This document shows, piece by piece, positions 41,165 to 64,000 of a DNA stretch of 64,000 bases (position 1 is its first letter; every line of letters begins with the position of its first letter). The stretch is from Muricea muricata (Eukaryota > Cnidaria > Anthozoa > Malacalcyonacea > Plexauridae): positions 25,659,418 through 25,723,417 of the forward strand of contig OY979716.1 of the NCBI GenBank assembly GCA_963855995.1. The letters run 5' to 3'. The notes under the pieces were generated by a model that saw only the letters and a program-made list of their open reading frames with translations, was not told the DNA's origin and did not search any database. The position numbers and the translations under genes are program-made.

Positions 41165-41315
41165 ACCTCTAAGACCAGCACCATCAACAGCACCACCATC
41201 CGATCATCACCACACCACTACCAGCACCATCCGATCATCATCGCCATCACGCTCATCTCATCACCAGCTCCGATCCACCACATCATCACCACCAGCACCA
41301 CCATCATCATCTAGC
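41165..41315. repeat. CAT/CAC-rich low-complexity tract
   Basis: Irregular CAY trinucleotides of the same type as the 56.06-56.83 kb spacer, including the shared word CATCCGATCATCA twice. Open frames through it are compositional. Confidence 0.8.
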
Positions 41316-41564
41316 ATATCCTACAATATTGTTCCTTTTGTTATTTTTTTAAAAAACTTTTTTCGCATGATTTGCCGCCATCATTGTAAAGCAATTCGAT
41401 TGGCTGAAACCGTAAGGGTGGGAAGATATTACTTCCAGCATTAAAAAATTTAGGATTTCTAATGTGCTTATAGAAAATGGGATTTCCTCACACCTTGCTT
41501 TATGCATCTATTTAAAGCGCCAATTAGGAACACATGTTAATTGCGTAGGCTGTTCTCATTTTAA

Positions 41565-41860
41565 AAAGGAACACGAATTGAAACGGAACAAATTGTTCCG
41601 ACTTCAATTTGATCGTTCCTTATACTTAATTGTTCCTCAAATAGGAACGCTATCACAAATATTGCTATTAGGAACAACAAATATCTTCCCTATTGTGGTT
41701 CCTTATTTAGGAACAAAAGGTTCCGCTCTGCGAAACAGGAACGAATAATAATGCTATAAAGTATTATTGGTTTATTGCTAATCAGCTTACTGAAAGGGAA
41801 CAACAAAGGGTATTGTTCCCTTTACATTATGTTCCGTTTTATTGTTCCCTTTGCAGCATG
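41565..41860. promoter_or_regulatory. cluster of GGAAC/GTTCC words upstream of the recombinase gene
   Basis: About fifteen GGAAC or GTTCC pentamers occur within 300 bp. They include the palindromic pair GGAACAAATTGTTCC and several GGAACAA/TTGTTCC forms. The cluster ends about 165 bp before the start codon at 42025. This density is far above that of the surroundings. Candidate roles are binding sites for the recombinase itself or for a regulator; neither is shown by sequence alone. Confidence 0.45.
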
Positions 41861-42024
41861 ACATTAACACAGGGCAATGTAATCTATATGGATGAGTGGA
41901 TTTTGCAAGCTAATAATTACGCTATGTTCACTATAAAATGCAAAAGATTTTGCTCGCGTAGCATTTGCTCTTTGTATATGCATGTTGTCACGAAGGAAAA
42001 CACAAGTAAATTGGAAATCTGTCG

Positions 42025-43620: not shown

Positions 43621-44050
43621 AGGCATTGATGTCATTTTTAATAACCAAAATAAACAGTTACAAAAATAAATGTAACATGTTATATGTAATGCTAGAATCG
43701 ACTGTGTAAACTTACGTATACATTGCGTACGAATTACAATATGTTTAAGAATCATGGACGTGTGATTGTAACGTTGTACTTGCCCCACTTTAAAGGTTAA
43801 CCTTTACTTGTTCAAAACTTATGTCAATGATGCCAGTTATTGTTTATGTTTGAAACAAGAAAGGTTTATCTTTGAAATTATAGAATTTAATATATTATTC
43901 AACAAGAAAACTCGTCTAAAACAGTTCAGTTTGTTTTCAACTGTGTCCGATGCATATGCAGGCTTGCGTTGAACAATTTCTTTTCTTTTTAATATAAATA
44001 AGGCATATTCTATGGTAGTGAACTGACATGTCTTAGAAATATATCTAATT
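43621..44050. other. no gene seen
   Basis: AT-rich spacer between the recombinase gene and the left satellite element; it holds the presumptive 3' region of the recombinase gene. Confidence 0.4.
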
Positions 44051-44403
44051 TAGTGGAGTTGCTTGTACCCTATGTAGAATAAAAGGTGTGATATATTTTA
44101 ATCTTATGAATAACCCAAATTACAAATCAAAAAACTTAAGAATACAAACCATGATAGCTGCATACAGAGAGTGTCGTTGTAATTTACTTTGTCTCTAACT
44201 GGACTGGCTACCTAATAGAAATCCTAGTAAAATCCACCGCTTACCTTATATAAAACGACCGCCTACCAACATACGGTACCGTTTTCTCTCTATTTAGCCC
44301 CCGGGGTTGGCTTATTCATTTCAGAACCTTTTGAGGGGGGGCTTATTGGAGAGGGGGGGGCTTAATTGAAAAGGGTGGCTTATTTATTCATCCAAAAAAC
44401 CAG

Positions 44404-44649
44404 GGTCATGGCTTTATATTATACCCCAAAGGTCGAAATGTGGAGAGAGCACTGGCTTTCTCACTCACTGGGACTGTATCTACTTCACCAAATTTAGCTA
44501 AAGCGCGAGCCCGAAGGGCGAGTAATGATTGTCGCGCTACGCGCTCCCTCTTTAACTAAATTTGGTGAAGTAGATACAGTCCCAGTGAGTGAGAAACCCA
44601 GTGCTCTCTCGACATTTCGACCTTTAGGGTATCCTATAAAGCCATGACC
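44404..44649. mobile_element. palindromic MITE (GGTCATGGCTTTATA ends)
   Basis: Two 100-bp arms starting GGTCATGGCTTTATA and containing CACTGGGACTGTATCTACTT are near-perfect complements. Between them lies GCGCGAGCCCGAAGGGCGAG and a GTCGCGCTACGCGC segment. Related copies occur at 48008-48237 and, split, around 27150-28400. Confidence 0.85.
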
Positions 44650-44664
44650 AAAAAACCAGCGATG

Positions 44665-45950
44665 GAGATGTTTCGTTGTAATTTACTTTGTCTCAAACTG
44701 GACCGGCTACCTAATAGAAATCCTAATAAAATCGACCGGCTACCAACTTATATGGTAGCCGTTCTTGAAATTTTTCTAAGTGTCGTTGTGACTTACTCTA
44801 ATAGAAATCCTAATAAACTCGACCAGCTACCATGATAAAACGACCGGCTACCAATACATAGTAGCCGGTCTTGAATTTTTTCTAAGTGTCGTTGTGATTT
44901 ACCTTGCCTCAAACTCCACCGGCTACCGGCTACCTAATATAAATCCTAGTAAAATCGACCGGCTACCATAATAAAACGACCGGCTACCAATACATAGTAG
45001 CCGGTCTTGATTTTTTTCTAAGTGTCGTTGTGATTTACTTTGCCTCACACTCCACCGGCTACCGGCTACCTAATATAAATCCTAGTAAAATCGACCGGCT
45101 ACTGACCGGCTACCATAATAAAACGACCGGCTACCAATATATAGTAGCCGGTCTTGAATTTTTTCTAAGTGTCGTTGTGATTTACTTTGCCTCAAACTCC
45201 ACCGGCTACCGGCTACCTAATACAAATCCTAGTAAAATCGACCGGCTACCATAATAAAACGACCGGCTACCAACATATAGTAGCCGGTCTTGAAATTTTT
45301 CTAAGTGTCGTTGTGAATTACTTTGCCTCAAACTCCACCGGCTACCGGCTACCTAATATAAATCCTAGTAAAATCGACCGGCTACTGACCGGCTACCATA
45401 ATAAAACGACCGGCTACCAATATATAGTAGCCGGTCTTGAAATTTTTCTAAGTGTCTTTGTGATTTACTTTGCCTCAAACTCCACCGGCTACCGGCTACC
45501 TAATACAAATCCTAGTAAAATCGACCGGCTACCATAATAAAACGACCGGCTACCATAATAAAACGACCGGCTACCAACATATAGTAGCCGGTCTTGAAAT
45601 TTTTCTAAGTGTCGTTGTGATTTACTCTAATAGAAATCCTAGTAAAATCGACTGGCTACCTTGTATAAAACGACCGGCTAGCAATATGTAGTAGCCGGTC
45701 TTGAAATTTTTCTAAGTGTCGTTGTGATTTACTTTGCCTCAAACTCCACCGGCTACCGGCTACCTAATACAAATTCTAGTAAAATCGACCGGCTACCGTA
45801 ATAAAACGACCGGCTACCAACATATAGTAGCCGGTGTTGAAATTTTTCTAAGTGTCGTTGTGATTTACTCTAATAGAAATCCTAGTAAAATCGACTGGCT
45901 ACTATTGTAAAACGACCGGCTACTATTGTATAAAACGACCGGCTACCTGT
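44665..45950. repeat. GACCGGCTACC satellite array, forward orientation
   Basis: Tandem units of about 135-150 bp contain AAATCCTAGTAAAATCGACC, GACCGGCTAC...GTAGCCGGTC inverted words and AAGTGTCGTTGTGATTTACT. Units vary in how many GACCGGCTACC blocks they hold. Long frames reading TGYRLPNINPSKIDRL are translations of the repeat. Confidence 0.95.
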
Positions 45951-45959
45951 TACCTAAAA

Positions 45960-46560
45960 TAGGTAGATTTAAATAATTATGTATATGTAAATTACTATAA
46001 GCCTCGAATATAAAAGGAGCCAACATGGGCTTAGGCGAGAGAAAGCCACAAAAGTTAACGAGGAGAACTTAAATTTTGAAATATCGAATATTGGAAAGGA
46101 CTTCACATGAAGTTATTGATCTTGAGTGATCGAGCAAGTTATTGATCTTGAGTGATCGAGCAAGTTATTGATCTTCATTGATCTTAAAAGAATCTAGATG
46201 GGTGTTAGTCCGTAGCTGTCTTGAGAACGAAAGCCTTGCTTGGTTAACGAGAGCATTTGCGAGCTGACGCTTGTCCAACTGCATTTAGCTTTGAAGGAAC
46301 AAATTATGATCACAACGACAAGTCTTGGTAAAGGTGAAGCGTAATATATCTATATATAATTATGTATAAATGTTCTTAGATATTTGCACTCTTGACACTC
46401 CTAACATATAGTAGCCGGTCGTTGAAATTTTTCGAAGTGTCGTTGTGATTTACTTCCAGATCCATTGAATATATAGCAAAGGAATTTCGTGTGTCCATTT
46501 CACTTGGAGTTCACATCGGTAACTGGTATTTTTTCGAAGTAAAATTATTAGAGACTTAGA
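45960..46560. other. unique core between mirrored satellite arrays
   Basis: About 600 bp of non-satellite DNA includes two and a half copies of a CAAGTTATTGATCTTGAGTG unit (46110-46175). The same core occurs in reverse complement at 62450-63060 with very high identity. No open frame of note. Confidence 0.85.
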
Positions 46561-46564
46561 TGAG

Positions 46565-47590
46565 AGACGTTACATGGTAGCCGGTCGATTTTGTTGGGAT
46601 TTCTATTAAATCGAGTAAATCACAACGACACTTAGACAAATTTCAAGACCGGCTACTATATATTGGTAGCCGGTCGTTTTATATAAGGTAGCCGGTCAGT
46701 AGCCGGTCGATTTTACTAGGATTTGTATTAGGTAGCCGGTAGCCGGTGGAGTTTGAGACAAAGTAAAAATCAAAACGACACTTAGAAAAATTTCAAGACC
46801 GGCTACCATAAGTTGGTAGCCGGTCGTTTCATATAAGGTAGCCGGTCAGTAGCCGGTCGATTTTACTAGGATTTGTATTAGGTAGCCGGTAGCCGGTGGA
46901 GTTTGAGACAAAGTAAAAATCAGAACGACACTTCGAAAAATTTCAAGACCGGCTACTATATATTGGTAGCCGGTCGTTTTATATAAGGTAGCCGGTCAGT
47001 AGCCGGTCGATTTTACTAGGATTTGTATTAGGTAGCCGGTAGCCGGTGGAGTTTGAGACAAAGTAAATCACAACGACACTTAGAAAAATTTCAAGACCGG
47101 CTACTATATATTGGTAGCCGGTCGTTTTATATAAGGTAGCCGGTCAGTAGCCGGTCGATTTTACTTTGATTTGTATTAGGTACCCGGTAGCCGGTGGAGT
47201 TTAAGACAAAGTAAATCACAACGACACTTAGACAAATTTCAAGACCGGCTACTATATATTGGTAGCCGGTCGTTTTATATAAGGTAGCCGGTCAGTAGCC
47301 GGTCGATTTTACTAGGATTTGTATTAGGTAGCCGGTAGCCGGCGGAGTTTGAGACAAAGTAAAAATCAGAACGACACTTAGAAAAATTTCAAGACCGGCT
47401 ACCATAAGTTGGTAGCCGGTCGTTTCATATAAGGTAGCCGGTCAGTAGCCGGTCGATTTTACTAGGATTTGTATTAGGTAGCCGGTAGCCGGTGGAGTTT
47501 GAGACAAAGTAAAAATCAGAACGACACTTAGAACAACTTCAAGACCGGCTACTATATATTCGTAGCTGGTCGTTTTATATAATTATATTG
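46565..47590. repeat. GACCGGCTACC satellite array, reverse orientation
   Basis: The same units as the forward array, but complemented (GGTAGCCGGTC, GTGGAGTTTGAGACAAAGTA). Many units use GAGACAAAG where the forward half has the equivalent of GAGGCAAAG, so the two halves have homogenised separately. Confidence 0.95.
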
Positions 47591-48600
47591 ATAATAATAA
47601 TTAAAATACTCCAAACAAAACGTCTTACCACAGTTTACAATTATTTACATCAATTAGTGATTCTAATAGAATATATAATTTATATAAAATTAAAAAGACA
47701 TCGATTTATAAACACGTTTTTAACCCCCTCAGTTTTTATAATGGGTAATTCAAAGTCATGACCTCTCTGTCTTAATGGACGATTTAACTTATTTGGTAGT
47801 AGACTATGTATATAGTGTATTAATTGTACGATCGTTCGTAATTCTTAACCATAAATTTTTGTCTCGATTTAGTATTATTTCTTTAAAATCGGATCTATTA
47901 CTTGTATAACCGTTTCTGTATGCACGATTGATAGATTTGTCAGTCTGACTCACATATTCAGTACATGATGCTCCGCGTAAAACCTCGACTGCAAAGGTGA
48001 AAAGGGAGGGTCATGGCTTTATAGGATACCCTAAAGGTCGAGATGTCGAGAGAGCACTGGGACCGACACCTGTGTTTTGCGTATTTCTCACTCACTGGGA
48101 CTGTATCTACTTCACCAAATTTAGCTAAAGAGGGAGCGCGTAGCGCGACAATAAGCGTACTGTTTTGCTATATTAAAACTATTCTCACTCACTGGGACTG
48201 TATCTACACTCACTGGGACTGTATCTAGATAAATCATTCTATGTATTCACTGCCTTGATATCATTAACCAGTACAGTAAACATTATGGGACCACGTACAG
48301 TACCCTGGGGCACGCCTCGATTAATATTCAGAAATTTAGTTGTAACATCGTCAATTTCAACTCTCTGGCTCCGGTTGGTCAGGATATGCATCTGCCAGTT
48401 GGTAATATATGGGTTGATTGGTATTTTCTTGATTTTTTTAAATAGAATATCATGCGGCACATTATCAAATGCTTTACTGAAGTCAAAAGAGAAGACTCTG
48501 GGCCATTTTTTTAGGGCCATAGTGGAATTATGTCCTTTTTTATATGAAAATTGATCGTCTCCAATATAATTATACATAATATTATGTACACACATTTCTC
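47590..48600 (-). pseudogene. LINE fragments interrupted by a MITE
   Basis: A minus-strand piece (48595-48239) encodes FSFDFSKAFDNVPHDILFKK (RT motif A) and RGVPQGTVRGPIMFTVLVND (motif B). A second piece (about 48000-47650) encodes LRQRGHDFELPIIKTEGVKN and FINRCLFN, a LINE C-terminus, ending in an ATTATTATC-type tail. Between them a half copy of the GGTCATGGCTTTATA MITE occupies about 48008-48237. The catalytic DD region is missing. Confidence 0.75.
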
Positions 48601-49019
48601 ACACTGACGCAAAATTATATCTCTTAATGAGATGTGTCTAAGCTGCGAACTAATTGAATTTTCGTTTGGTCAAGGAATGACATCTGCTCTTTTCCAAACA
48701 TTCACAAGTTTGAGACAAAGTAAATTACAACAACACCCTTTGTATGCAGTTATCATGATTTGTATTCTTATCTTTTTTCATTTTTTAAATTGTAATTTGG
48801 CACACTTATAAAATATCATATTTCACACCTTTTATTCTATATACGGCGCCAGCAAGTCCCTAGCAACATGGTAGCAATGGTGAATAATGCTGACTTAAAC
48901 CAATTTCTAAAGAAGCGATAATTTTTTTCACGTCAATAATTTATTTGATTGCTGTTTTAACATGTGATTTTGTTTAAATAAAACATAAACTTAAAGAATT
49001 AAGATCAGGTTGAAAGCGT

Positions 49020-49382
49020 GTGCCGAATGTACTCAAACCTTCATGTACAATTCTTGTACATATTGAGCGCTTTTTCCTCGTTGCTACCACGTTGATAAGG
49101 ACTTGCTTGAACGCCCTATGCACACAAGAACAAGATCAAGAACAAGAACGAGAACAAGAACAACAACAAATAATGGAAAATGACCTACAATATTCACACA
49201 CTGTTGGAGTGCCACTTTGTGGCCAAAGAAGAAAAACTAATGTATCAAATGAAAAAACGTTTCCATGCAAATATCGTTCACTCAAAGACATTATGATTAA
49301 AGAGCTTATAACGTCAACAAAGACATTTGGGAATGGAAAGCAATATCTTCCTTACAATTATCAATGTTCCTGGATCAGGTAA
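49020..49382 (+). CDS. candidate exon of unknown gene tail-to-tail with helicase copy 1
   Basis: A 120-residue frame has a Gln/Glu-rich stretch (QEQDQEQEREQEQQQ). It is followed by ENDLQYSHTVGVPLCGQRRK and KDIMIKELITSTKTFGNGK, and ends at ATCAG|GTAAGT, a strong splice donor at 49380. No family was recognised. A diverged counterpart lies on the minus strand at 60640-61010 beside the second helicase copy. It preserves TATT.ACACTGT, GAAAGCAAT.TCTT and the CAG|GTAAG donor. That symmetry makes it more than a chance frame. Further exons were not found. Confidence 0.4.
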   Translation: MPNVLKPSCTILVHIERFFLVATTLIRTCLNALCTQEQDQEQEREQEQQQIMENDLQYSHTVGVPLCGQRRKTNVSNEKTFPCKYRSLKDIMIKELITSTKTFGNGKQYLPYNYQCSWIR

Positions 49383-51854
49383 GTTGATTATTTATATGTG
49401 CTCTTCAATCTCTGAATATCCTAACGCTTTTTCAACATTTCTTTCATTTAGCACACACTAACACACAAGAAGTTTGCATATGAGCACATGGATTTCTACC
49501 ACGGCCTCCAGTTCTTGATCTTAGTCCAATAGGATTGGCTGGTTAAGGGAGGTCTTACAGGATCACCGTCACTGTCCACTTCTTCGTCCTCTGGCACTGG
49601 CTGCTGCACGTCACCTCGTTCTTCAGATAAAGCTGCGACAGCCTTGGCAAACGGGCAGCGATCGGGCATGACGCGAACATTGGCTTTCGTCCGCAGTGTT
49701 CGCAAATGAGCACTGCATTGCGGGTATGCCTCGGCGAATTGTTCCATGTTGAAAATGTCTCGTTTTTCGCCCAACATGAGGAGTGAAGCATCGATTTCTG
49801 GATCAGGATCTTCCCAGAACTTCTTCTCAGAGAACGTCCGACGCAGTCGAGCCTTTCGAAGCCGTTCCTGGTAGCTGTGGACTCTACCTTTACTCACATC
49901 CTTGTAAAAGGAGTGTTGAATGAGCTGCGCAACTCTGGAAAAGTAAACGTTGGAGTTTATTCTCCAGCCTTCTGGTGGACAATCTATTGGTCGCTGCGGG
50001 ATTGGATTCTCCTCAGCTTCAACTGGAGTAGTTGCCCTGTTGGAACGGGGACGGCTCGCTTCCTTTTCGACGTGGGCAAAGGAAGTGGACGGCTCAGAGG
50101 GGAAAGCGTCGAGTTCTGTGTCACTGCCGCGGGTACTCACTGATGCAGTGGCTGCTTCGCTGACTGGTGGATTGGCTTGATCACAGACGGACGAGGACTC
50201 CGGATGGATTGCTGCAGCTGGTGTTGGTGTGGTCTCTGAGGGAGGAGTTGCCTGGGTGTCTTCGTCAGCCGTTGAGACAGGTGAGGTTCGCCGCCGTCGT
50301 TGTCTTCTTCTCTGAAGTCGTTGTGCGCGACGTTCTCTCGCAAACCTCTCGTGTATTGTTTGCAATAGGTCGATGTCGTCTGGGTCCTCGTCGTTTCGAA
50401 GATCGGCCGGACCAATCTGTCGAATATGGCCGACTTGAAACGGCGCCGTTGCGTCGGAAGCCGTTATGGTGAGGTCCTGTGGATCCGCTTCCTCGTACCA
50501 CAACTCTTCCGACGCAATATGTTGGTGGTGTTCCAGCAGTTCTTGCGCGATCCAGGCAATGCAGTGCATAGCATTGTCGTATATCCATTTGTCCATGCCT
50601 GTGGTTGTCGATGGTAAGGACTTGGTGGTGAAAATCTGGATGCGCCTGGCGACGTTTTGATCTTGGTCTCCAAAGTCGGGAACATTGTTCGACGTGATGT
50701 AATACGGACTGTTGTTTAAAACTTGCCTTGGTTCCCCGTGCTTGATAGCGGTTACCATCCATCCGCCTTGCAGAATTGTTTTGGCCAGGTGGGAAGTCAT
50801 CATTTGAGAAGACCACTCGTCCACTATAACCAACTGAGTGTCTTCTCTGATCATTGCCGCGGAGAATTGGCCTTCGTTGGTTACTGAGGCGATGCATTCG
50901 CGTGGCACAACACGATGGAAGACGTTAGCCCAGCTCGTTTTTCCAGAGTCTCGTGGCCCAACCACTACAAGTTTCCTCACTTTGTGCGGCATCTTCGAGG
51001 CGAGCAAACACTGGTAAAACTTGTTGAGGAAATAGACCTTTTGCGTAATAGCATCTGGCCGCAAAGCATGACGGTAGGAGGCTGTATGTTGCTTCCGAAT
51101 GAAATGGCCGACGAACAGGCGTGCAATTTTGTTTGGAAGAAAAAAATATCGGCTTTTTGCAAACAATTTGAACTGATCGGTAGTATTTTTGTATGGAATA
51201 TTAAGAAGGAGTTTATGGCTAAGTATAACAAAAATATTAGAAAGATTTGTGCATTGACAGCGAAGAAAATGCCTCGCGAAGCGGTCGTGTTGTGGACGTT
51301 CTTTGGAAGAATTTGCTTGCAAAAAATCGACTGCTTGAAGTTAGAAAGGTGAGTTAACTTGTTCAGCCGCGATCGGTCGATTTTTTTTTAAAAACAAGTA
51401 TCTCTGGTATATTTCCCAGCAGGAAATAGGCTTCACTTACTTTTACCCATGTTAAAATGTGATTTTAGGCTCTGTGAAATCGACAAATGTTGTCACGGTT
51501 TTGTTCGGATTTGACATTACACATCCTGGGTCTGTTTGGCGGGAAAATATTTGAATTTTAATAAGTTTACAAAGTTTATGACACGAAATTTGTTGATAAA
51601 AGTGATTTTCTTGGTTCATTACTGTTGTTCATCCTCTGCCTCAGACGTGTTTTGGTTTCTCTCCTCCATTAAACTATTTAATCTATCGTAAGCCTATTTA
51701 AAGTAATTTTTAGAATAATAAATATAGTTAAATTTAGCTTTTGAAATTTTTAAAATTGACTTGTACTAAACCATGGGTAAAATTATAAAATTTTAGGTGG
51801 TAGGAATATGAATTTTTAAATTAATAATAGTTGTAGTGCTATAAATTACAAAAC

Positions 51855-52818
51855 ATGGAGGAGGGTGCCAGTAATTCACTTAGAGCAGACAATGAAATCC
51901 TAAATGTGCAAAGATGGACAAGGAGCCTTAATGGCCTTCCAACATTTACATATGAGATGTTAGCAAAACATTTAAGCATGGAAAATTCAGGTGCTGGCTC
52001 TCAGAAACACAAAAAGTTAGGCTAACAAATGCTTAAAGATAAATATGTTGGAAAAGTCGAGGTTAAAGCAAATGTTGGCAAGGATAACATGTCATGCTTC
52101 TTGGTTAAAGGATGCATAAATGCTGCCATGAAAAGTAATACATAAATTGTATATGTTCATTTAAATCAAGCTAATGGGGAGGTTGTGTACAGCAATTGCA
52201 CATGTGCAGCTGGCAAAGGGGGAAGATGTAAGCACATTGTGGCTCTACTATTTCAAATAATTGAGTACAGACAATTAGACATAACTGAGATACCTGATCA
52301 GCTTACATGCACTCAACTTCTGCAACAATGGCATGTACCAAGAAAAGTTGAGTCAGACAAGCCTGTTTTATGTGAAAACATTGCATTCAAAAAAGCAGTT
52401 TACAAAAAAGATGTCCAGGGTAAAAAAACGAAAGAACAGTTTCCGTGAAATAGAATATGACCCTTGTTCTGAATTTGCAAAGACTATTGAACAAAATGAC
52501 ATTAAAAAATTAGCAAATTCATTAAACAGCTTTGACCCAAACAGTTACTTGGGAAGGTTATTAGAATCAAATGAATGTCAACCTTGTCACTTTGATAGTC
52601 TGCATGAAGATCTATCATTAAAAAAGATGCACACTGAATCAATACAACTTAATATAAATGACAGCAGTGTCCGGGGTAAAATTTTACAGAATTTGCAACA
52701 TACATTGGATGAACAACCACTTGACTCTGCAACAAGCCAATTAAATTGGTCAGTTAAGATAACATTAGCAGAAGTATTAGAAATTGAGAAAAATACTAGG
52801 GAGCAATCTTCTAGTTAG
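51855..52818 (+). pseudogene. SWIM zinc-finger protein encoded in the TIR element
   Basis: From an ATG at 51855 the frame reads MEEGASNSLRADNEILNVQR. It has stops near 52022 and 52143, then NCTCAAGKGGRCKHIVALLF, a clear SWIM finger (C-x-C...C-x-H), and QLTCTQLLQQWHVPRK. After a frame change near 52420 it gives EYDPCSEF, LANSLNSFDPNSYLGRLLES and CHFDSLHEDLSL. This order matches the region before YqaJ-type nuclease domains in cnidarian SWIM proteins; the nuclease is not present. It is partly decayed and overlaps the left inverted repeat at its start. Compare the gene at 17.9-22.4 kb. Confidence 0.75.
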
Positions 52819-52885
52819 GTTCCCTGACTAGTTAGGTTCTAGACTCGAGTTAGGTTCCCTGACACCTTTTCTTTTCAACACTTAC

Positions 52886-53068
52886 ATCCACTTTTTATTT
52901 AACTCAGGAGTTTTGGGGATTTTGTGAAATGACAGTTCTGGATTTTTTGGATTGTTGTTATCACACTTTGTCACGCAGCAGTATCTTTTCCACATTCGAT
53001 GGCTAGGAGCTTCATTTGGGTTGTTGTTACTGTCTGCTCTAAGTGAATTACTAGCACCCTCCTCCAGG
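52886..53068 (-). CDS. THAP exon encoded in the TIR element
   Basis: The minus strand reads EEGASNSLRADSNNN from the inverted repeat, then RYCCVTKCDNNNPK and LSFHKIPKTPELNKKW, the first half of a THAP finger (C-x4-C and the conserved Trp). It ends at GTGGAT|GTAAGTG, a good donor. The usual ATG position is CTG here, so translation start is uncertain. THAP fingers supply DNA binding to P-element and Kolobok transposases. The downstream exon with the second ligand pair was not found, probably lost or overwritten by the SWIM unit. Confidence 0.6.
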
Positions 53069-54423
53069 TTTTGTAACTTACAGCACTACAACTAATTATT
53101 AAAATTAATATTCCTACCACCTAAAATTTTATAATTTTACCTACGGTTTAATACAACCAAGTCAATTTTAAAAATTTCAAAAGCTAAATTTAACTATATT
53201 TATTATTCTAAAAATGACTTTAAATAGACTTACAATAGATTAAATACTTTATAATGGAGGAGAGGAACCAAAACACTTCTGAGGCAGAGGATGAACAACA
53301 GTTTATCAACAAATTTCGTGTTATAAACTTTGTAAACTTATTAAAATTCAAATATTTTCCCGCCAAACAAAACCAGGATGTGTAATGTCAAATCCGAACA
53401 AAACCGTGACAACATTTGTCGATTTCACAGAGCCTAAAATCACATTTTAACATGGGTAAAAGTAAGTAAAGCCTATTTCCTGCTGGGAAATATACCAGAG
53501 ATACTTGTTTTTAAAAAAAAATCGACCGATCGCGGCTGGACAAGCTAACTCACCTTTCTAACTTCAAGCAGTCGATTTTTTACAAGCAAATTCTTCCAAA
53601 GAACGTCCACAACACGACCGCTTCGCGAGGCATTTTCTTCGCTGTCAATGCACAAATCTTTCTAATATTTTTGTTATACTTAGCCATAAGCTCCTTCTTA
53701 ATGTTCCATACAAAAATACTACCGATCAGTTCAAATTGTTTGCAAAAAGCCGATATTTCTTCTTCCAAACAAAATTGCACGCCTGTTCGGCGGCCATTTC
53801 ATTCGGAAGCAACATACAGCCTCCTACCGTCATGCTTTGCGGCCAGATGCTATTACGCAAAAGGTCTATTGACCCTGGTGACAATGTCTTCAAACGAATT
53901 GAGCATGGCATCTCTGAAGTAGCCGGGCTGTGGTGGAGTCGAACAGTCGTAGGGAACGTAGGCTGTGGGCGAGATTTTACTGCGCATTGAGGGGGCAATT
54001 GGAGAAATGATGAAACGTCGCTGGAGGATCGAGAAACAAAAGCCGTTGGATACCTCTATGAGGTCGGTGTTAAATTTTAATTGCTCGATTATCTCGCATG
54101 CTGGATGGGCAAGGAACTTTTCGAGCATATGGAAATGTCTCATGACACCGTCTCTCAAATGATCGTTTGCGAGCAATTTGTGAAGGTAGCTTGAGACATC
54201 CGTCATACGAACATACGTGTAGGTTGCACCGTCGGGCCTTCCATATACGTGTGAGCGATAAATTGCGTGGTTGCACAGTAGCATCACCTTGTGAATATCT
54301 TTGATTAAAACTGCGAGTTGGTTGGTAGCCGTTTCGGTTGGGTCAGCCGAGCAGACGTCACGTGATGCATCCGTAACCACGACAAGTCCATCGGAGCGAA
54401 GTTTGTCGCAAGCTCGGTGCAAC

Positions 54424-54948
54424 CTTAAAAGATGAAGGTGCAATATCAATATCTGACCAGTTTCAATCATCGGTAAATAACCAATATAATTTACGTAGTT
54501 ATTGCACTATGCTAAAACTAGCGAAACCTAGAACGCACACATTGAAACGAAGTTTTAGCTACCATGCCGCTAAAACCTGGAATAAACTGCCAACTGATCT
54601 GAAAAATCTAAATATATCTGATAAGGTATTCAAACATAACTTACAAGATTTCACAAATGAAAATCCTTCGTTTGTAAATAACTTTTCAAGTTCTCTATAA
54701 TTGCTAAATCTTTATATGCATCCTAGTTCTATCATTATTAATTAACTATAGCTTTATATCAGTAATCCTTATGTAATTAATTCTTGTATCTTGACGCTTT
54801 TATCTTACTATCTCTACACGGCCTTATAAAAAGCAAGCTTTTTTTCTTATCCAGTTAATAATATTGTGCTTCTTTTAATCTTTATCTAGATATGTCGATA
54901 AGTTACCGTGCACAAAGAATTTTAAATAATAATAATAATAATAATTAC
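54424..54948 (+). mobile_element. 5'-truncated LINE 3' end inserted in helicase copy 1
   Basis: The plus strand encodes NNQYNLRSYCTMLKLAKPRT and KRSFSYHAAKTWNKLPTDLK to a stop at 54700, the C-terminal signature of CR1-like LINE proteins. A 230-bp 3' region and an AAT tail (54927-54948) follow. The insertion sits within the coding frame of helicase copy 1, where copy 2 is continuous. Confidence 0.85.
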
Positions 54949-55925
54949 CTTTCGCCAAATTCCCTCTCGTTCACAACGACCTGCACGCAAGGAACCATTG
55001 GGAAACGGGTCGGATGTATTTCGTTCTCTGAATCTTCGTCGTCTGAGCTGCCGTCGGCGTTGCGATAACAATAAACATTTGAAATGTCCAACATTTCTTG
55101 AATGGTTGGACTGTTGTGGTCTTTCACGACTTGGAATAGCTGTTTGGCAGCTTTCTCTATTTGGTTTGAGCTGCGCACTCGAATTGGAGAAATTTCAGGC
55201 TCCATGTCATGATTGTGCATCGCCGCGAACAGAAGGTTTTCGTTGCACGTCTGTGTTTCGCGATACACGATGAAATAGGCAATGGCTGGGTAACTTTGCC
55301 GGGCCCTTGGTACTTGCGACGACGACCTTGCGTTTGACGCGACGCAGGAGATGGCAGAAAAGAAATATTGCACCCCATTTATTTTGCATAGTAGGTCGTC
55401 CAACTCCAATCGCTTTGAAGCAATTTGGTACTGTGCCAATTGGATGTCCTCAGCACAAACACGCCAGATTGCTCTGCAAGAGACGGCTTTGCAATCGTTG
55501 GAGATCTGAAAGAAGTTGTGTGTTTTGTCTTTAGTTTTTAACAATTTTAACTTGTACATATATATTATACTCATTTAATTCATATCTTTAACTTGTACAT
55601 ACACGGCCATCTGAAAATCAACCTTTTTATTTTCCATATAATTTTCATGATCGTTTCAGTTTAGTTAGGGCGAGGTTGAGATATTACCGTGTTTAAATAT
55701 TTGTAAATAATAATAATAATAATAATAAGGGTCCGGTTGAATTTTTATCAATAATAATAAAATCATTAAAAATATGCTCACAACACCACCTGAAAGCGGC
55801 AAACCCAAAACATGCAATAAACAATAGGCGTTTTGAAGCCAACTTACCGTTGTAAGAATGTTTGCACGTAGTGAATCCTGTAAACGTTTGGAGTCGAGCT
55901 CTTTACGTGGCCGAACAGTGGCCAT

Positions 55926-56062
55926 GATTGCAAAATGGCTTTTGGTGAAAAATTTACACAAAAAAATTGAAAGCGAACTATTTGAAGCGAACTTTTAGCA
56001 AGAAGCAATCGTTCTAGTTATAGCAGCAATAATCATGCATCGGAACAGATTTATATACTTTG
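55926..56062 (-). promoter_or_regulatory. promoter region of helicase copy 1
   Basis: TATATAAA occurs on the minus strand at 56057-56050, about 130 bp before the start codon. The whole region is the near-perfect complement of 57056-57198. Confidence 0.6.
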
Positions 56063-56830
56063 GTCATTGCAACCAGCACCACAATCATCATCAGCACCAG
56101 CAACACCATCATCGCCATCATCACCACTGTCACATCGACCAGCACCACCATACATCATCACCACCATCATCATCACAACCGCTATCATCACCGCCATCAC
56201 CACTTTCACCACCACCATCATCACCAGGACTACCATCATCATCACCACCACAACCAGCACACCCATCGGATCACCACCACCGTAGTCATTGTCACCAGCA
56301 CCACAAGCATCATCACCACCAGCACCACAAGCATCATCACCACCAGCACCGCTATGATCATCATCATCACCAGCATCACAATCATCATGACCTCCACCAC
56401 CACCATCATCATCACCACTACCATTCGATCATAACCACCCCACCATCATCGCCATCGTAACCACCACCATCATAACCACCAGCACCACCATTCAATCACC
56501 AGCCTCATCATCCTCATGACCAACACCACCACCACTATGAGATCATCAGCACCATCATCATCACCACCAACACCACCATCATCATCACAACCGCCATCAC
56601 TACCAGCATCGTCACCAAAAGCATCACAATCATTATCACCACCATCACCTCCATCATCATCACCACTACCATCTTCATCAGATCTGCGATCATCATCACC
56701 ACCAACATCATCCATCCAATCCATCAAACCAATCCACCAAATCCAATCCACCAAATACCATCCAATCATCACCACAACCATTATCATCACCATGAGCACT
56801 ACGATCATCACCACCACCACCACCACCATG
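56063..56830. repeat. CAT/CAC-rich spacer at the centre of the inverted gene pair
   Basis: About 770 bp of irregular CAY trinucleotides with strong strand asymmetry (C and A on plus, G and T on minus). It could form triplex or other unusual DNA. All frames through it are compositional (His/Thr/Ser/Pro on plus, Val/Met on minus). A related tract lies at 41.17 kb. Confidence 0.9.
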
Positions 56831-57055
56831 CATATGAGTGCTTATTCAAGAAAATTGTTTTAATTTATATTACAGTATGTGACAATTTTTATGTTACGAA
56901 TTTTACTTGCTCTTGAAAACGAAGGCATTTGCCGGGATTCTATGTGGCATACAGAATTGCTGAAAACCTAATTATCATCATCATTACCATCATCATCACA
57001 ACTATCCGGTCACCATCACCAGCACCGCTTCACAAGTCTAGAACGATTGGTGGTA

Positions 57056-57198
57056 GATGACCAAAGTATATAAATCTGTTCCGATGCATGATTATTGCTG
57101 CTATAACTAGAACGATTGCTTCTTGCTAAAAGTTCGCTTCAAATAGTTCGCTTTCAATTTTTTTGTGTAAATTTTTCACCAAAAGCCATTTTGCAATC
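57056..57198 (+). promoter_or_regulatory. promoter region of helicase copy 2
   Basis: TATATAAA lies at 57067-57074, 132 bp before the ATG. The complement of this region stands in front of copy 1, so the pair forms a mirrored divergent promoter around the CAY spacer. Confidence 0.6.
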
Positions 57199-60100
57199 AT
57201 GGCCACTGTTCGGCCACGTAAAGAGCTCGACTCCAAACGTTTACAGGATTCACTACGTGCAAACATTCTTACAACGGTAAGTTGGCTTCAAAACGCCTAT
57301 TGTTTATTGCATGTTTTGGGTTTGCCGCTTTCAGGTGGTGTTGCGAGCATATTTTTAATGATTTTATTATTATTGATAAAAATTCAAGCGGACCCTTATT
57401 ATTATTATTATTATTATTATTTACAAATATTTAAACACGGTAATATCTCAACCTCGCCCTAACTAAACTGAAACGATCATAAAAATTATATGGAAAATAA
57501 AAAGGTTGATTTTCAGATGGCCGTGTATGTACAAGTTAAAAATATGAATTAAATGAGTATAATATATATGTACAAGTTAAAATTGTTAAAAACTAAAGAC
57601 AAAACACACAACTTCTTTCAGATCTCCAACGATTGCAAAGCCGTCTCTTGCAGAGCAATCTGGCGTGTTTGTGCTGAGGACATCCAATTGGCACAGTACC
57701 AAATTGCTTCAAAGCGATTGGAGTTGGACGACCTACTATGCAAAATAAATGGCGTGCAATATTTCTTTTCGTCCATTTCCTGCGTCGCATCAAATGCAAG
57801 GTCGTCGCGAGCACAGCGCGCAGGGGAAAGTTATCCGGCCATCGCATATTTCATCGTCTATCGTGAAACGGTTGCATGTAACGAAAATCTCTTGTTTGCG
57901 GCCATGCACGACCACGACATGGATGCGGAAATTTCACCAATTCGAGTAAGAAGCGTCAACCAGGTGGAGAAGGCGGCCAAACAACTGTTTCAGGTCGTTA
58001 AAGACCACAACAATCGGACGATCCAGGAAATGTTGGATATCTCGAATGTTTACTGTTACCGTCACGCGGAAGATAGCTGCGACGAGGATTCAGACGACGA
58101 AATCAACCCTAGCCGATTCCCCATGGTGCCTTCTATACTGGTCGTTGTCAACGAAAGGGAATTTAGTGATATTTTAGAACGAGCATGCAACAAACTTCGC
58201 TCCGATGGACTTGTATTAGTCATGGACGCATCACGTGACCAAAGTTCGGCAGCTGCAGCAGAAACGACGAGCAACGAAGTTGCAGTTTTGATAAGAAAGA
58301 TCGCCAAGGCAATGGAACTATGCAGTCACGCCATTTATCGTTCCCAGGTGTATGCAAGGCCCGATGGTGCGGCCTTTACATACGTTCGCATGATGGATGT
58401 CAGCAGCTATCTGCATAAATTACTTGCCAACGATTGTTTGAGAGACGGTGTGATAAAGCATTTTCAAGTGCTTCAAAAATTTCTTGGTCATCCAGCATGC
58501 GAGATTATCGAGCAGCTGAAATTCAACAATGACCTCATCGAAGTGTCAAACGGCTTTTGCTTTTCCGTCATTCAGCGTCGCTTTATACCTTGCCCACTTG
58601 TCCCTTGTATGCGCGGAAAGATCTCCCCAAGAGCCTTCGTTCCCAACGATTGTTCAACTCCACCTGAGCCAGGCCACTTCCGAGACGCAATTTTGAATTC
58701 CTTTGAAGACCCCGTCACAAGAGTAAACTTCTTGAATAAATTCTACCAATGTTTGCTCGCGTCCAGAATGCCGCACAAAGTGAGGAAACTTGTTGTCGTT
58801 GGGCCAAGGGACTCCGGGAAAACGAGCTGGGCTAATGTTTTCCATCGCGTCGTGCCTTCAGAGTTCATTGCGTCCATTACCAACGAACGGCAATTCTCGG
58901 CGGCAATGATTAAAGACGACACTCAGTTGGTGATAGTGGATGAGTGGTCTTCGCAATTGATGACGTCGCACCTTGCCAAGACAATCCTTCAAGGGGGCTG
59001 GATAGTTACAGCAGTTAAGCACGGCGAACCTCGGCAAGTATTAAACAACAGCCCATATTACATAACATCGAACAATGTTCCAGACTTTGGGGAGGAGGAT
59101 GAAAACGTCGGAAGGCGTATCCAAATCTTCAGAACCAAGTCGCTACCATCAACAACAACAGGCACGGATAAGTGGGTGTACGACAATGCCATGCACTGTA
59201 TCGCTTGGACAGCAGAAGAATTGGCACAAAACCACCAACTTATTGCATCGGAAGAATTGTGGTACGAGCAATCGGACCCACAAGACCTAACCGTAAGTGG
59301 CAATCAAGGCAAGTCTCTTTTTCGAGTGGACCATCTTCGTCGGATTGGCGCGGCAGACCTTCGCAATGACGAGCATACGGACAACGACAGCGACCTTTTA
59401 CGAATCATCCACGACAGGTTTGCGCAAGAGCGTCGAGCACAAAGGTTTCGCAGAAGAAGACAACGACGGCGACGAACATCCCCGGCGTCCACGGATGACG
59501 AGGAAGACAGCCAAATCGTCTCCGATTCAGTTGTGCGACGTTCGGCGAACTGCAGTCCATCAATAAGTGACGAAAGTCAACACGACGTCGCTGCAACAGG
59601 TGCGAGGCAACCAAATACGTCGCCACCCAGTGGACAGCCTGCTTCACCAGCCTTTTCATCAGCAAGTGACTCTGCTCCATCAGCCACCCGACCAGCCACT
59701 CTGCCAGCTCATTCCTCGGCCACACTTGCAGGAATTCAATCAGCCCACACGTCCACCAGTCGACAGGGCCAAACGAAAACGTTGGCCATTTCATCACAGC
59801 CGTCCACTTCTTTCGCCCACGCCGAAGAGAGCGCTTCCAATTCAAGCGACACGACACCGTCATTTGTTGATGCGCGCGAAGATGCGGTCGTTGTATCTGC
59901 CAGTACAGTTCGTGAAGTTCAGCAGCAAGACATTCCGGACTATCCTATTGAAACTCCACAACGAGGTTGGCAAATTAATACGGAACGTTACCACAAGAAA
60001 GTTGCACAATTGGTAAAACACTCGTTTTATAAAGAATTGAGCAAGGGGCTAGTCTACTCCTATCAGGAACGGCTTCGAAAGGCTCGACTGCGTCGCACGT

Positions 60101-60435
60101 TGTCGGAGAAGAAATTCTGGCAAGATGCCGATCCAGAAATCGACGCATTCCTGTTGATGTTAGGGCAATGTCGAGATGTCTTCAACATAGTGGAATTCGC
60201 TGCCTCCTACCCACAATGCAGAGGACATTTGGACGCACTGCGGAGAAAAGCAAATGTTCGCGTCATGTTTGATCGATGCCCATTTGCCAACGCCGTCGCA
60301 GCTTCAGAGCAAAAAGCAGGGGAGGTACAGCAGCCAGTCGAAGAAGAGGAGGAACTTGATGCGGACGGTGACCCAGCACGACCTCCGTTAAGTAGCCAGT
60401 CATACTGGACCAAAATTAAGAAGTGGAGGCCGTGA
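57199..60435 (+). CDS. SF3-helicase protein, copy 2, intact two-exon gene
   Basis: Exon 1 (57199-57276, 26 codons) ends ACG|GTAAGT. Exon 2 (57622-60435) follows TTCTTTCAG in phase 0, giving about 963 residues with no interruption. The start is favoured by the TATA box upstream and the exact exon match in copy 1. Residues 420-427 (GPRDSGKT) are Walker A, 462-468 (LVIVDEW) Walker B, 504-511 (PYYITSNN) motif C, and R524/R525 the likely arginine finger: a superfamily 3 helicase core of the parvovirus NS1/papillomavirus E1 type. Residues 1-400 match nothing I know, and no convincing HUH nickase motif is present. A Ser/Thr/Pro-rich linker (about 590-795) leads to a conserved charged tail. It may be a domesticated viral or replicon protein, or the replicase of an undescribed element. 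ATPase function is inferred from motifs. Confidence 0.85.
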
Positions 60436-60639
60436 TAGACATGTCTTCTTTTACGCCAGTAAGAATGGGGTAAAAATATTCCCATAAAATTTGAAATGTT
60501 TCCATGTCTAAACTTCATGTGTGCTTGTGTATGTTTCTGCTATATAAAGTAAATATAGAGATTTCAAAAAGACCTTATCATTTTCATACTAACGTTCATG
60601 CAACTGAAAACGTTAAAGTGCATATATCAATAATCATCT

Positions 60640-61010
60640 TACCTGGTGATCAAAGCTTCATAAATATAAGCAAGAAAATTGCTTTCAGTTGCAAAACAGA
60701 CTTGTTTAAATCACTCGTCGTTACAAACAGTGATTCTTTCGTTCACCATTATCGTGCGGTAATACGTTCGATAGCCATGAGAGCTGTTACATTTGGTCGC
60801 ATTCCATAACCCTAACCAGCTGATGATGTTTGTATATATATATTTTTTCATTACTTTTCCATTCTCCATATGTGCTAGCTGAACATTTCACAGTGTGAAA
60901 ATATTGTATGGAATCTACCAATGAGGAGTTCCGTGATTTGTTGTTGTTGTGTGTGTGTGTGCATATGCATATGTATGTATGTATGACTGTCTGTGTACGG
61001 CCTTCAACCA
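60640..61010 (-). pseudogene. diverged counterpart of the 49.0-kb unknown exon
   Basis: Read on the minus strand, ATATTTTCACACTGT, a GAAAAGTAATG stretch, GAAAGCAATTTTCTTGCTTA and finally CACCAG|GTAAGATG parallel the plus-strand exon at 49135-49382 in order and spacing. The frame is broken. It stands tail-to-tail with helicase copy 2, just as the 49-kb exon does with copy 1. Confidence 0.4.
60940..60985. repeat. TTG/TG and TATG microsatellite
   Basis: Short TTG units, a TG run and GTATGTATG units lie inside the diverged exon counterpart. Confidence 0.8.
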
Positions 61011-61349
61011 AGTCCTATAATCAGCCAACGTAACATATAGCAACGGCGAGAAATGTACTTAATACCAAAATTATACACTAACATTTCAGTTAATTCATCA
61101 TTGTTTTAACTAAATATTCATTGTTTGAAGTTTCTGTCTTCTTTAAAAACAAAAGTTCCGTTAGTCGTCATTTGAACACTGACTTCAAGCCAATTATAGG
61201 CATGACAAGAACAAGATTTTTGGCCTTGAAAAAGTTCAGAACATTCATTAATTCTTTAACACGAGCTTTGGGTCTGTACGATTCAAGAACAGTCTGCAGT
61301 GATTGTACATGTTTAACGTCTTAGAAATGGCTAAAATTTGAAGGTTTAA

Positions 61350-64000
61350 CGCAGTTGCTACGCGGTTGCTACGGACTTTGTTGGAACGTTTAAGACACAG
61401 GATATGTAGAATATTGGAATCGCATAACCACAGGAAAAAAAATTTAAAATAGCAAATGAAAAAAATGAAATTTAAAATAGCAAATGAAAAAAAAAAAGAG
61501 GTTACCATTAAGAATTACGATATCTGCTTACATTTGGGGTTTTCTCTTAGTGTCCTTCTCATTCAGTTTGAAAAAAATACCTAAAAATTAACTGGCAACC
61601 TAATAGAAATCCTAATAAAATCGACCGGCTACCATAATAAAACGACCGGCTACCAACATATAGTAGCCGGTCTTGAAATTTTTCTAAGTGTCGTTGTGAT
61701 TTACTCTAATAGGAATCCTAGTAAAATCGACTGGCTACCTTGTATAAAACGACCGGCTAGCAATATATAGTAGCCGGTCTTGAAATTTTTCTGAGTGTCG
61801 TTGTGATTTACTTTGCCTCATACTCCACCGGCTACCGGCTACCTAATATAGATCCTAGTAAAATCGACCGGCTACTGACCGGCTACCTTATATAAAACAA
61901 CCGGCTACCAATATATAGTAGCCGGTCTTGAAATTTTTCTAAGTGTCGTTCTGATTTTTACTTTGTCTCAAACTCCACCGGCTACCGGCTACCTAATACA
62001 AATCCTAGTAAAATCGACTGGCTACTGACCGGCTACCTTATATAAAACGACCGGCTACCAATATATAGTAGCCGGTCTTGAAATTTTTCTAAGTGTCGTT
62101 GTGATTTACTTTGTCTCAAACTCCACCGGCTACCGGCTACCTAATACAAATCCTAGTAAAATCGACCGGCTACTGACCGGCTACCTTATATAAAACGACC
62201 GGCTACCAATATATAGTAGCCGGTCTTGAAATTTTTCTAAGTGTCGTTCTGATTTTTACTTTGTCTCAAACTCCACCGGCTACCGGCTACCTAATACAAA
62301 TCCTAGTAAAATCGACCGGCTACTGACCGGCTACCTTATATAAAACGACCGGCTACCAATATATAGTAGCCGGTCTTGAAATTTGTCTAAGTGTCGTTGT
62401 GATTTACTCGATTTAATAGAAATCCTAACAAAATCGACCGGCTACCATGTAAAGTCTCTCATCTAAGTCTCTAATAATTTTACTTCGAAAAAATACCAGT
62501 TACCGATGTGAACTCCAAGTGAAATGGACAGACGAAATTACTTTGCTATATATTCAATGGATCTGGAAGTAAATCACAACGACACTTCGAAAAATTTCAA
62601 CGACCGGCTACTATATGTTAGGAGTGTCAAGAGTGCAAATATCTAAGAACATTTATACATAATTATATATAGATATATTACGTTTCACCTTTACCAAGAC
62701 TTGTCGTTGTGATCATAATTTGTTCCTTCAAAGCTAAATGCAGTTGGACAAGCGTCAGCTCGCCAATGCTCTCGTTAACCAAGCAAGGCTTTCGTTCTCA
62801 AGACAGCTACGGACTAACACCCATCTAGATTCTTTTAAGATCAATGAAGATCAATAACTTGCTCGATCACTCAAGATCAATAACTTGCTCGATCACTCAA
62901 GATCAATAACTTCATGTGAAGTCCTTTCCAATATTCGATATTTCAAAATTTAAGTTCTCCTCGTTAACTTTTTTGGCTTTCTCCTTGCTCCTTTCTCCTT
63001 GCTCCTTTTATATTCGAGGCTTATAGTAATTTACATATACATAATTATTTAAATCTACCTATTTTAGGTAACAGGTAGCCGGTCGTTTTATACAATAGTA
63101 GCCAGTCGATTTTACTAGGATTTCTATTAGAGTAAATCACAACGACACTTAGAAAAATTTCAACACCGGCTACCATAAGTTGGTAGCCGGTCTTTTTATT
63201 ATGGTAGCCGGTCAGTAGCCGGTCGATTTTATTAGGATTTCTATTAGGTAGCCGGTAGCCGGTGGAGTTTGAGGCAAAGTAAATCACAACGACACTTAGA
63301 AAAATTTCAAGACCGGCTACTATATGTTGGTAGCCGGTCGTTTTATTATGGTAGCCGGTCGTTTTATTATGGTAGCCGGTCGATTTTACTAGGATTTGTA
63401 TTAGGTAGCCGGTAGCCGGTGGAGTTTGAGGCAAAGTAAATCACAACGACACTTAGAAAAAATTCAGGACCGGCTACTATGTATTGGTAGCCGGTCGATT
63501 TATTATGGTAGCCGGTCAGTAGTAGCCGGTCGATTTTACTAGGATTTATATTAGGTAGCCGGTAGCCGGTGGAGTATGAGGCAAAGTAAATCACAACGAC
63601 ACTTAGAAAAATTTCAAGACCGGCTACTATATATTGCTAGCCGGTCGTTTTATACAAGGTAGCCAGTCGATTTTACTAGGATTTCTATTAGAGCAAATCA
63701 CAACGACACTTAGAAAAATTTCAAGACCGGCTACTATATGTTGGTAGCCGGTCGTTTTATTATGGTAGCCGGTCGTTTTATTATGGTAGCCGGTCGATTT
63801 TACTAGGATTTGTATTAGGTAGCCGGTAGCCGGTGGAGTTTGAGGCAAAGTAAATCACAAAGACACTTAGAAAAATTTCAAGACCGGCTGCTATATATTG
63901 ATAGCCGGTCGTTTTATTATGGTAGCCGGTCAGTAGCCGGTCGATTTTACTATGATTTATATTAGGTAGCCGGTAGCCGGTGGAGTTTGAGGCAAAGTAA
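61350..64000. mobile_element. right satellite-bearing element, reverse of the left one, runs off the window
   Basis: It contains a satellite array in forward orientation (61590-62440), the reverse complement of the 600-bp core (62450-63060) and a mirrored array from 63060 to the window end. Its first array matches the left element's second array (TTTGTCTCAAACTCC units) and its last matches the left element's first (GAGGCAAAGTA units), so the whole is inverted relative to 44.05-48.86 kb. A diverged version of the left terminal sequence (TTAAGAATTACGATATCTGC) precedes it. The outer end is beyond the window. Confidence 0.7.

What the first reader, a model, noticed from the sequence alone, without database searches (positions are those of the whole stretch)
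49020..61010. Head-to-head pair of SF3-helicase genes forming a 12-kb inverted locus
Two copies of a gene for a protein of about 963 residues with complete superfamily 3 helicase motifs face away from each other around a CAY-rich spacer, with the same intron and mirrored TATA boxes. A second unknown exon stands tail-to-tail beyond each copy. SF3 helicases are normally viral or replicon proteins. A multi-gene inverted arrangement in an animal chromosome suggests either a domesticated viral gene duplicated as a palindrome or a large mobile element of undescribed type. Motifs and arrangement are seen; function and origin are inferred.
Basis: partly seen in the sequence, partly recalled or inferred. 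Interest (0 to 1): 0.9.

Follow-up and report, generated by a model that had tools for sequence, protein, structure and literature searches.

The report
Coral transposon with recombinase and helicase
The "palindrome" is two copies of an ~11-kb mobile element, inserted back to back in triplet repeats of what is probably a coral genome, that pairs a phage-type integrase gene with a viral-type replication helicase gene; no such animal element turned up in the literature that could be searched.

Summary
The two SF3-helicase genes are real and lie head to head, but the inverted pair is not the functional unit. Unit 1 spans about 41311-56064 (14.8 kb with nested insertions); unit 2 runs from 57060 to about 4.0 kb past the window's end (11.0 kb). 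Between the genes lie dozens of GACCGGCTAC sites in inverted arrays (possible origin); the YR end carries 17-18 GGAAC sites in ~600 bp (possible integrase arm sites). Elsewhere in this genome the unit occurs singly, head-to-tail and head-to-head. The 19 SF3-side ends found genome-wide lie in CAY/RTG-type triplet tracts (13) or directly at or ~25 nt after another unit's YR end (6). Subfamilies show purifying selection; some copies are nearly identical, so movement was recent. Best reading: a YR transposon that integrates as a circle at a GATGA-like core and carries its own E1/parvovirus-like replication initiator. Integration is well supported by anatomy; circle and autonomous replication are inferred. 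Copy 1's gene is split by a 2.8-kb insertion; the "second exon" is not supported.

The parts
41311..56064 (-). Unit 1 (about 14.75 kb with nested insertions); SF3-side end at 56064, YR-side end at 41311
   Evidence: end motifs ACCAAAGTATATAAATCTGTTCC and ATATGCTAG|ATGA
57060..64000 (+). Unit 2, window part; continues to L009:4014 (about 4.0 kb past the window's end), about 10.95 kb in all
   Evidence: end motifs; flank fetched
42025..43620 (+). Tyrosine recombinase ORF of unit 1 (531 aa as listed; about the first 18 codons of the 544-aa frame seen in unit 2 are out of frame here). Zinc-finger-like N-terminus, catalytic R287 / H382xxR385 / H412 / Y421, C-terminal Myb domain
   Evidence: the 544-aa partner is in L009 1710-3344
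41311..41900 (.). Cluster of 17 GGAAC/GTTCC sites at the YR end (possible integrase arm sites)
   Evidence: 17-18 sites in 6 of 6 copies counted; Markov expectation about 0.7, maximum 5 in 2000 samples per copy
44691..47600 (.). Iteron arrays of unit 1: 54 exact GACCGGCTAC sites, both strands, in two mirrored arrays (candidate replication origin)
61600..64000 (.). Iteron arrays of unit 2 (continue into L009)
49496..55925 (-). SF3 helicase gene of unit 1 (B-type subfamily), interrupted
51035..53866 (.). Nested 2.8-kb element with long inverted repeats inside the helicase domain of unit 1 (not part of the unit)
   Evidence: arms 97% complementary; boundaries by eye
56065..57059 (.). CAY-rich spacer between the units (target tract)
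57067..57074 (+). TATATAAA box at the SF3-side end of unit 2; mirror at 56050-56057 (-) in unit 1
57199..60435 (+). SF3 helicase gene of unit 2 (A-type): exon 1 57199-57276, intron 57277-57621, exon 2 57622-60435, 963 aa
   Evidence: relative P0066 has a comparable N-terminus by eye

Best explanation
The locus is two copies of a site-specifically integrating DNA transposon of about 11 kb. Each unit encodes a tyrosine recombinase and a superfamily 3 initiator-type helicase. Proposed cycle: (1) the recombinase excises or resolves the unit to a circle whose joined ends read GATATGCTA-GATGA-CCAAAGTATATAAA (inferred); (2) the helicase, transcribed from the TATA box at the unit's end, assembles on the GACCGGCTAC arrays and starts replication with host polymerases (inferred); (3) the recombinase, docked on the GGAAC cluster, recombines the joined ends with GATGA- or GACCA-like triplets in host CAY/RTG tracts, or with the end of a resident unit (supported by the ends; the enzymology is inferred). 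Because the target is short and strongly preferred, units pile up head-to-tail and head-to-head. The window pair is such a pile-up; the units have also exchanged segments with other subfamilies, in part within the arrays.
For: YR catalytic residues and fold; SF3 motifs and fold. Both genes in the same units, including two single units with both ends seen. Exact, repeated ends. Of 19 SF3-side ends genome-wide, 13 in triplet tracts (11 by score, two by eye), five fused to another unit's YR end, one about 25 nt after such an end; none elsewhere; reversed-pattern control 0. GGAAC cluster in 6 of 6 copies. Iteron sites kept in a diverged subfamily, 31 exact against about 11 expected. dN/dS 0.07-0.23 for SF3 between A- and B-type; 0.09-0.12 for six of seven YR comparisons, 0.26 for one; A-type copies differ by dS 0.002-0.011. 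Hit lists of SF3 and YR relatives share 5 contig lengths, crude expectation 0.02.
Against: No reads or RNA: neither the circle nor replication was seen, and fused junctions could also come from unequal exchange. Searches of the genome for YR-side ends and for both proteins did not complete, so counts rest on SF3-side ends with at most 2 mismatches. YR has no Foldseek hit below E=0.001, its Pfam integrase match is weak (8 of 40 members, best E 0.0055), and the model is poor around the catalytic Tyr. The YR frame has a premature stop in the C3 single unit and in two other copies. The helicase's N-terminal domain was not identified. Linkage in other genomes rests on equal contig lengths only.
Confidence: 0.72

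Rival explanations
1. The inverted pair itself is the functional unit: a domesticated viral helicase gene duplicated as a palindrome, or one large palindromic element.
For: Mirror symmetry of about 27 kb; other head-to-head sets at C1:63.5M and C1:66.75M.
Against: Two single units with both ends in simple repeats; at least six of 19 SF3-side ends stand head-to-tail to another unit; the paired units carry different SF3 subfamilies; copy 1's gene is split by an insertion.
Confidence: 0.05
2. An endogenous DNA virus related to parvo- or papillomaviruses, integrated by a captured recombinase.
For: The SF3 domain resembles NS1/Rep/E1 and D5-like helicases in fold.
Against: In the C3 unit the ORFs of 150 aa or more are YR, SF3 and one antisense to SF3; ORFs of 70-110 aa exist and were not searched for families. 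No relative confirmed in IMG/VR. The hits that bear names are cnidarian proteins; most hits bear none.
Confidence: 0.1
3. A Crypton-like YR transposon in which the SF3 gene is passenger cargo and the unit does not replicate by itself.
For: YR relatives are more numerous (888 hits) than SF3 relatives (160 hits with a profile; candidates were capped), so YR elements without SF3 may exist.
Against: SF3 is under purifying selection across subfamilies and SF3 and YR relatives share contig lengths; iteron arrays are not known from Cryptons (recalled).
Confidence: 0.2

Closest known systems
Cryptons (YR DNA transposons; Kojima and Jurka 2011, PMC3212892: abstract and passages seen)
   Same: Tyrosine recombinase with R-H-R-Y; short sequence shared by both ends, as in fungal and oomycete Cryptons; proposed circular intermediate
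   Different: Animal Cryptons are described there with no C-terminal domain and no terminal repeats, and 'helicase' does not occur in the text; here a Myb domain, an SF3 gene and iteron arrays. None of 40 YR members matched DUF3504 at E<=1
Telomere/microsatellite-inserting nimavirus YRs (PMC10871703: passages and section 10 seen)
   Same: YR with C2H2-type zinc domain, called arm-binding, inserting into simple repeats
   Different: Nimavirus genomes there are hundreds of kb; these units are 11 kb with two genes; YR sequences were not compared
Polinton-like viruses and virophages with YR and S3H (PMC4642659: passages seen)
   Same: Some combine a YR integrase and an SF3 helicase
   Different: They carry capsid genes and some a polymerase; no ORF long enough for these was seen in the C3 unit
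Papillomavirus E1 / parvovirus NS1 (SF3 initiator helicases)
   Same: SF3 ATPase domain fold
   Different: No HUH motif conserved in the N-terminal part; similarity outside the ATPase not shown

Membership tests
Superfamily 3 helicase | Walker A, Walker B, sensor Asn and arginine-finger motifs in order (motif names recalled) | tested here: met
   GPRDSGKTSW, LVIVDEW, PYYITSNN, GRRIQIF in order; conserved columns
Superfamily 3 helicase | SF3 AAA+ fold | tested here: met
Tyrosine recombinase | R ... HxxR ... H/W ... Y catalytic set (recalled) | tested here: met
   R287, H382, R385 invariant, H412 and Y421 nearly invariant in 40 sequences
Tyrosine recombinase | Catalytic-domain fold | tested here: met
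Crypton | Short direct repeats at both ends (fungal and oomycete groups; passages of PMC3212892) | tested here: met
   ATG/GATGA at both ends; animal Cryptons are said there to have none
Crypton | YR is the only encoded enzyme (animal groups; passages of PMC3212892) | tested here: not met
   SF3 gene in the same unit
Crypton | YR groups with Crypton YRs or matches Crypton-derived DUF3504 | tested here: inconclusive
   No DUF3504 match among 40 members at E<=1; no tree made
Polinton-like virus / virophage | Major capsid protein and packaging ATPase genes | tested here: not met
   No ORF above 110 aa outside YR and SF3 regions in the C3 unit; other units not listed ORF by ORF
Parvovirus | NS1 with HUH nickase domain (recalled) | tested here: inconclusive
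   Only HxH in residues 1-420 is HDH at 122, not conserved; N-terminal domain not folded alone
Nimavirus-type microsatellite YR | Sequence relationship of the YRs | not tested
   no sequences compared

The most novel reading that the evidence does not exclude
The unit is an animal integrative replicon: a capsid-less, plasmid-like nuclear element that replicates as a circle from an iteron origin with its own SF3 initiator and uses a phage-type integrase to enter triplet repeats, a class of transposon that I know of nowhere in animals.
Probability: 0.42. Interest if true: 0.88.

Novelty: new variant of a known kind. Interest (0 to 1): 0.74.

Why it matters
Eukaryotic YR transposons are rare, and how those without reverse transcriptase gain copies is unclear (general knowledge). 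A unit that couples a YR with a viral-type replication initiator and a candidate origin offers a testable answer: replicate as an episome, then integrate. It would also bridge transposons and small DNA viruses, give SF3 initiators a non-viral home in animals, and provide a natural integrase with simple-repeat targets.

Tried and rejected
Rejected: the palindrome as functional unit (single and head-to-tail units). Not supported: the second exon. IMG/VR scans with A1 and A2 matched patterns (26 and 7 stretches) but tblastn confirmed none. PDB sequence searches gave only weak hits for SF3 (E1 at E=0.11) and Myb/TRF hits for YR. A strict CAY/RTG bin test flagged 1 of 1066 bins and was dropped because it missed the known spacer; a trinucleotide score replaced it.

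Mended on recheck: my notebook (entry 3) gives 56 iteron sites in unit 1; the recount is 54. It also calls the window units 'reciprocal chimaeras' with a YR side of unit 2 95-98% like C1:66.75M. bears out less: over the YR end unit 2 is 96.1% like C1:66.75M, 95.0% like C3 and 97.4% like the second unit at C1:63.5M, and the first 0.7 kb of unit 1's SF3 end is closer to C3 (98.0%) than to C1:66.75M (95.0%). So an inversion between the arrays is one possibility only. My odds rested little on this and are unchanged.

An ungapped comparison of the C1:8643766 and C53:200490 flanks gave 52% and was replaced by BLAST, 94% over 1.4 kb: probably one insertion in two allelic contigs. The second unit at C1:63.5M has no recognisable SF3-side end. 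A wrong search string spoiled the exon-2 line; redone.

Literature: ten searches of the held PMC library, listings seen; passages read in PMC3212892 (and its abstract), PMC10871703 (and its section 10), PMC11071296, PMC5013282, PMC4642659, PMC6431247. No listed title or abstract start and no passage read describes a YR plus SF3 transposon of animals. Subscription papers and Repbase entries could not be searched.
Full report
What is there. The window is C1:25659418-25723417 of a 453-Mb genome in 74 contigs. The hits that bear names are from Paramuricea clavata and Dendronephthya gigantea (octocorals), Clytia hemisphaerica and Oculina patagonica, so the host is probably an octocoral (inference). 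The two helicase genes lie at 49496-55925 (-) and 57199-60435 (+). The second encodes 963 residues from two exons. An unnamed relative, P0066, starts with a stretch that looks comparable by eye, which supports exon 1. The first copy is split at about 51035-53866 by a 2.8-kb element with long inverted repeats. Its subfamily also has a gap of 0.53-0.54 kb with GT-AG borders, shared by two sister copies.

The unit is bigger than the finding. Comparing window 40-64 kb with fetched flanks showed that the mirror symmetry extends to an ORF at 42025-43620 and to its partner in L009, past the window's end. Single units at C3:54799729-54810851 (11.1 kb) and C1:8643766-8655427 (11.7 kb) have both genes and both ends (coordinates worked out). 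SF3 shows no stop in either; YR is open in the second and has a premature stop in the first.

Ends and targets. The SF3-side end reads ATG|ACCAAAGTATATAAATC, the YR-side end GATATGCTAG|ATGA. The C3 unit sits in pure (ATG)n, the C1:8.6M unit in a CCACCACGA-type repeat. Of 19 ends in fetched loci, 15 have flanks scoring 0.5 or more for CAY/RTG trinucleotides, against 61 of 4386 bins overall, those tracts included. Of 19 SF3-side ends genome-wide with at most two mismatches (reversed-pattern control 0), 13 lie in triplet tracts (11 score 0.5 or more; C1:59598000 at 0.41 and window unit 2 at 0.28 are weaker and judged by eye), five are fused to another unit's YR end, and one follows such an end by about 25 nt. 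One of the 19 is probably allelic. Four of the five fused junctions keep GCTAGAT(G/C)-ACCAAAG, as a circle junction would; the fifth joins a more diverged YR end.

Cis sites. The YR end has 17-18 GGAAC sites in about 600 bp in 6 of 6 copies counted, where a Markov model gives 0.7 and at most 5 in 2000. Between the genes, unit 1 has 54 exact GACCGGCTAC sites in mirrored arrays. A B-type unit keeps 31 in 2.15 kb, where 15% random divergence of unit 1's array would leave about 11, at most 22 in 500; concerted evolution could also do this.

Selection and age. SF3 of unit 2 against B-type copies gives dN/dS 0.07-0.23 (pieces over 80 codons, stops skipped); a third, more distant subfamily in L027 is saturated. 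Seven YR comparisons give 0.09-0.12 in six and 0.26 in one. Among A-type copies dS is 0.002-0.011 and dN/dS is uninformative (0.2-2.2). The second unit at C1:63.5M gives 0.25-0.72, as expected of decay.

The pair. Unit 1 is mostly 97-99% like C3 from its YR end to about 47.6 kb, then B-type (92-96% to C1:66.75M), then again closer to C3 (98.0 against 95.0%) over the last 0.7 kb at the SF3 end. Unit 2 is about 99% like C3 from its SF3 end to about 62.6 kb; its YR end is not (95.0% to C3, 96.1% to C1:66.75M, 97.4% to the second unit at C1:63.5M). The units are thus mosaics of subfamilies with switches in the arrays. An inversion between the mirrored arrays could explain the main switches; independent exchanges or an assembly error cannot be excluded without reads. 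Other head-to-head sets are at C1:66.75M and C1:63.5M; head-to-tail sets are at C1:70.97M, C1:66.76M and four further places.

Linkage elsewhere. The listed SF3 and YR relatives (120 and 114 distinct contig lengths) share five lengths (34153, 313987, 488635, 519560, 632645), crude expectation 0.02. This is indirect: distances are unknown, and only 120 of 888 YR hits and the listed part of 160 SF3 profile hits entered.

Verdict. A young mobile element that joins a YR integrase to an SF3 initiator, with strong triplet-tract preference. Integration by YR is well supported by anatomy; circle and self-replication are inferred. It is not a Crypton by gene content, nor a Polinton-like virus, as no capsid-sized ORF is present; it would work like an integrative plasmid.

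Noticed in passing
51035-53866: A 2.8-kb element with about 470-bp inverted repeats and termini GACCTTTTGCGTAATAG, with a 161-aa ORF at 52333-52818; the part inside the query matches many places in the genome.
   Followed up: partly
12569-13348 (-): ORF with a reverse transcriptase domain (Pfam RVT_1, E=2e-23), probably a LINE fragment.
   Followed up: partly
L025:3279-6581: An open 1100-aa frame that looks gag-pol-like by eye (retroelement) lies inside the helicase gene of one unit at C1:70.97M.
   Followed up: no
L014:2183-2700 and window 56487-57048: Part of the spacer is shared, 87% identical over 562 columns, by the window pair and the C1:63.5M pair, so the target tract may belong to a dispersed or duplicated repeat.
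   Followed up: partly
44404-44649 and about 47990-48220: A MITE-like or foldback sequence (with TCACTGGGACTGTATCTACTTCACC) nested in unit 1; the first also matches L009 692-937 at 88%.
   Followed up: no
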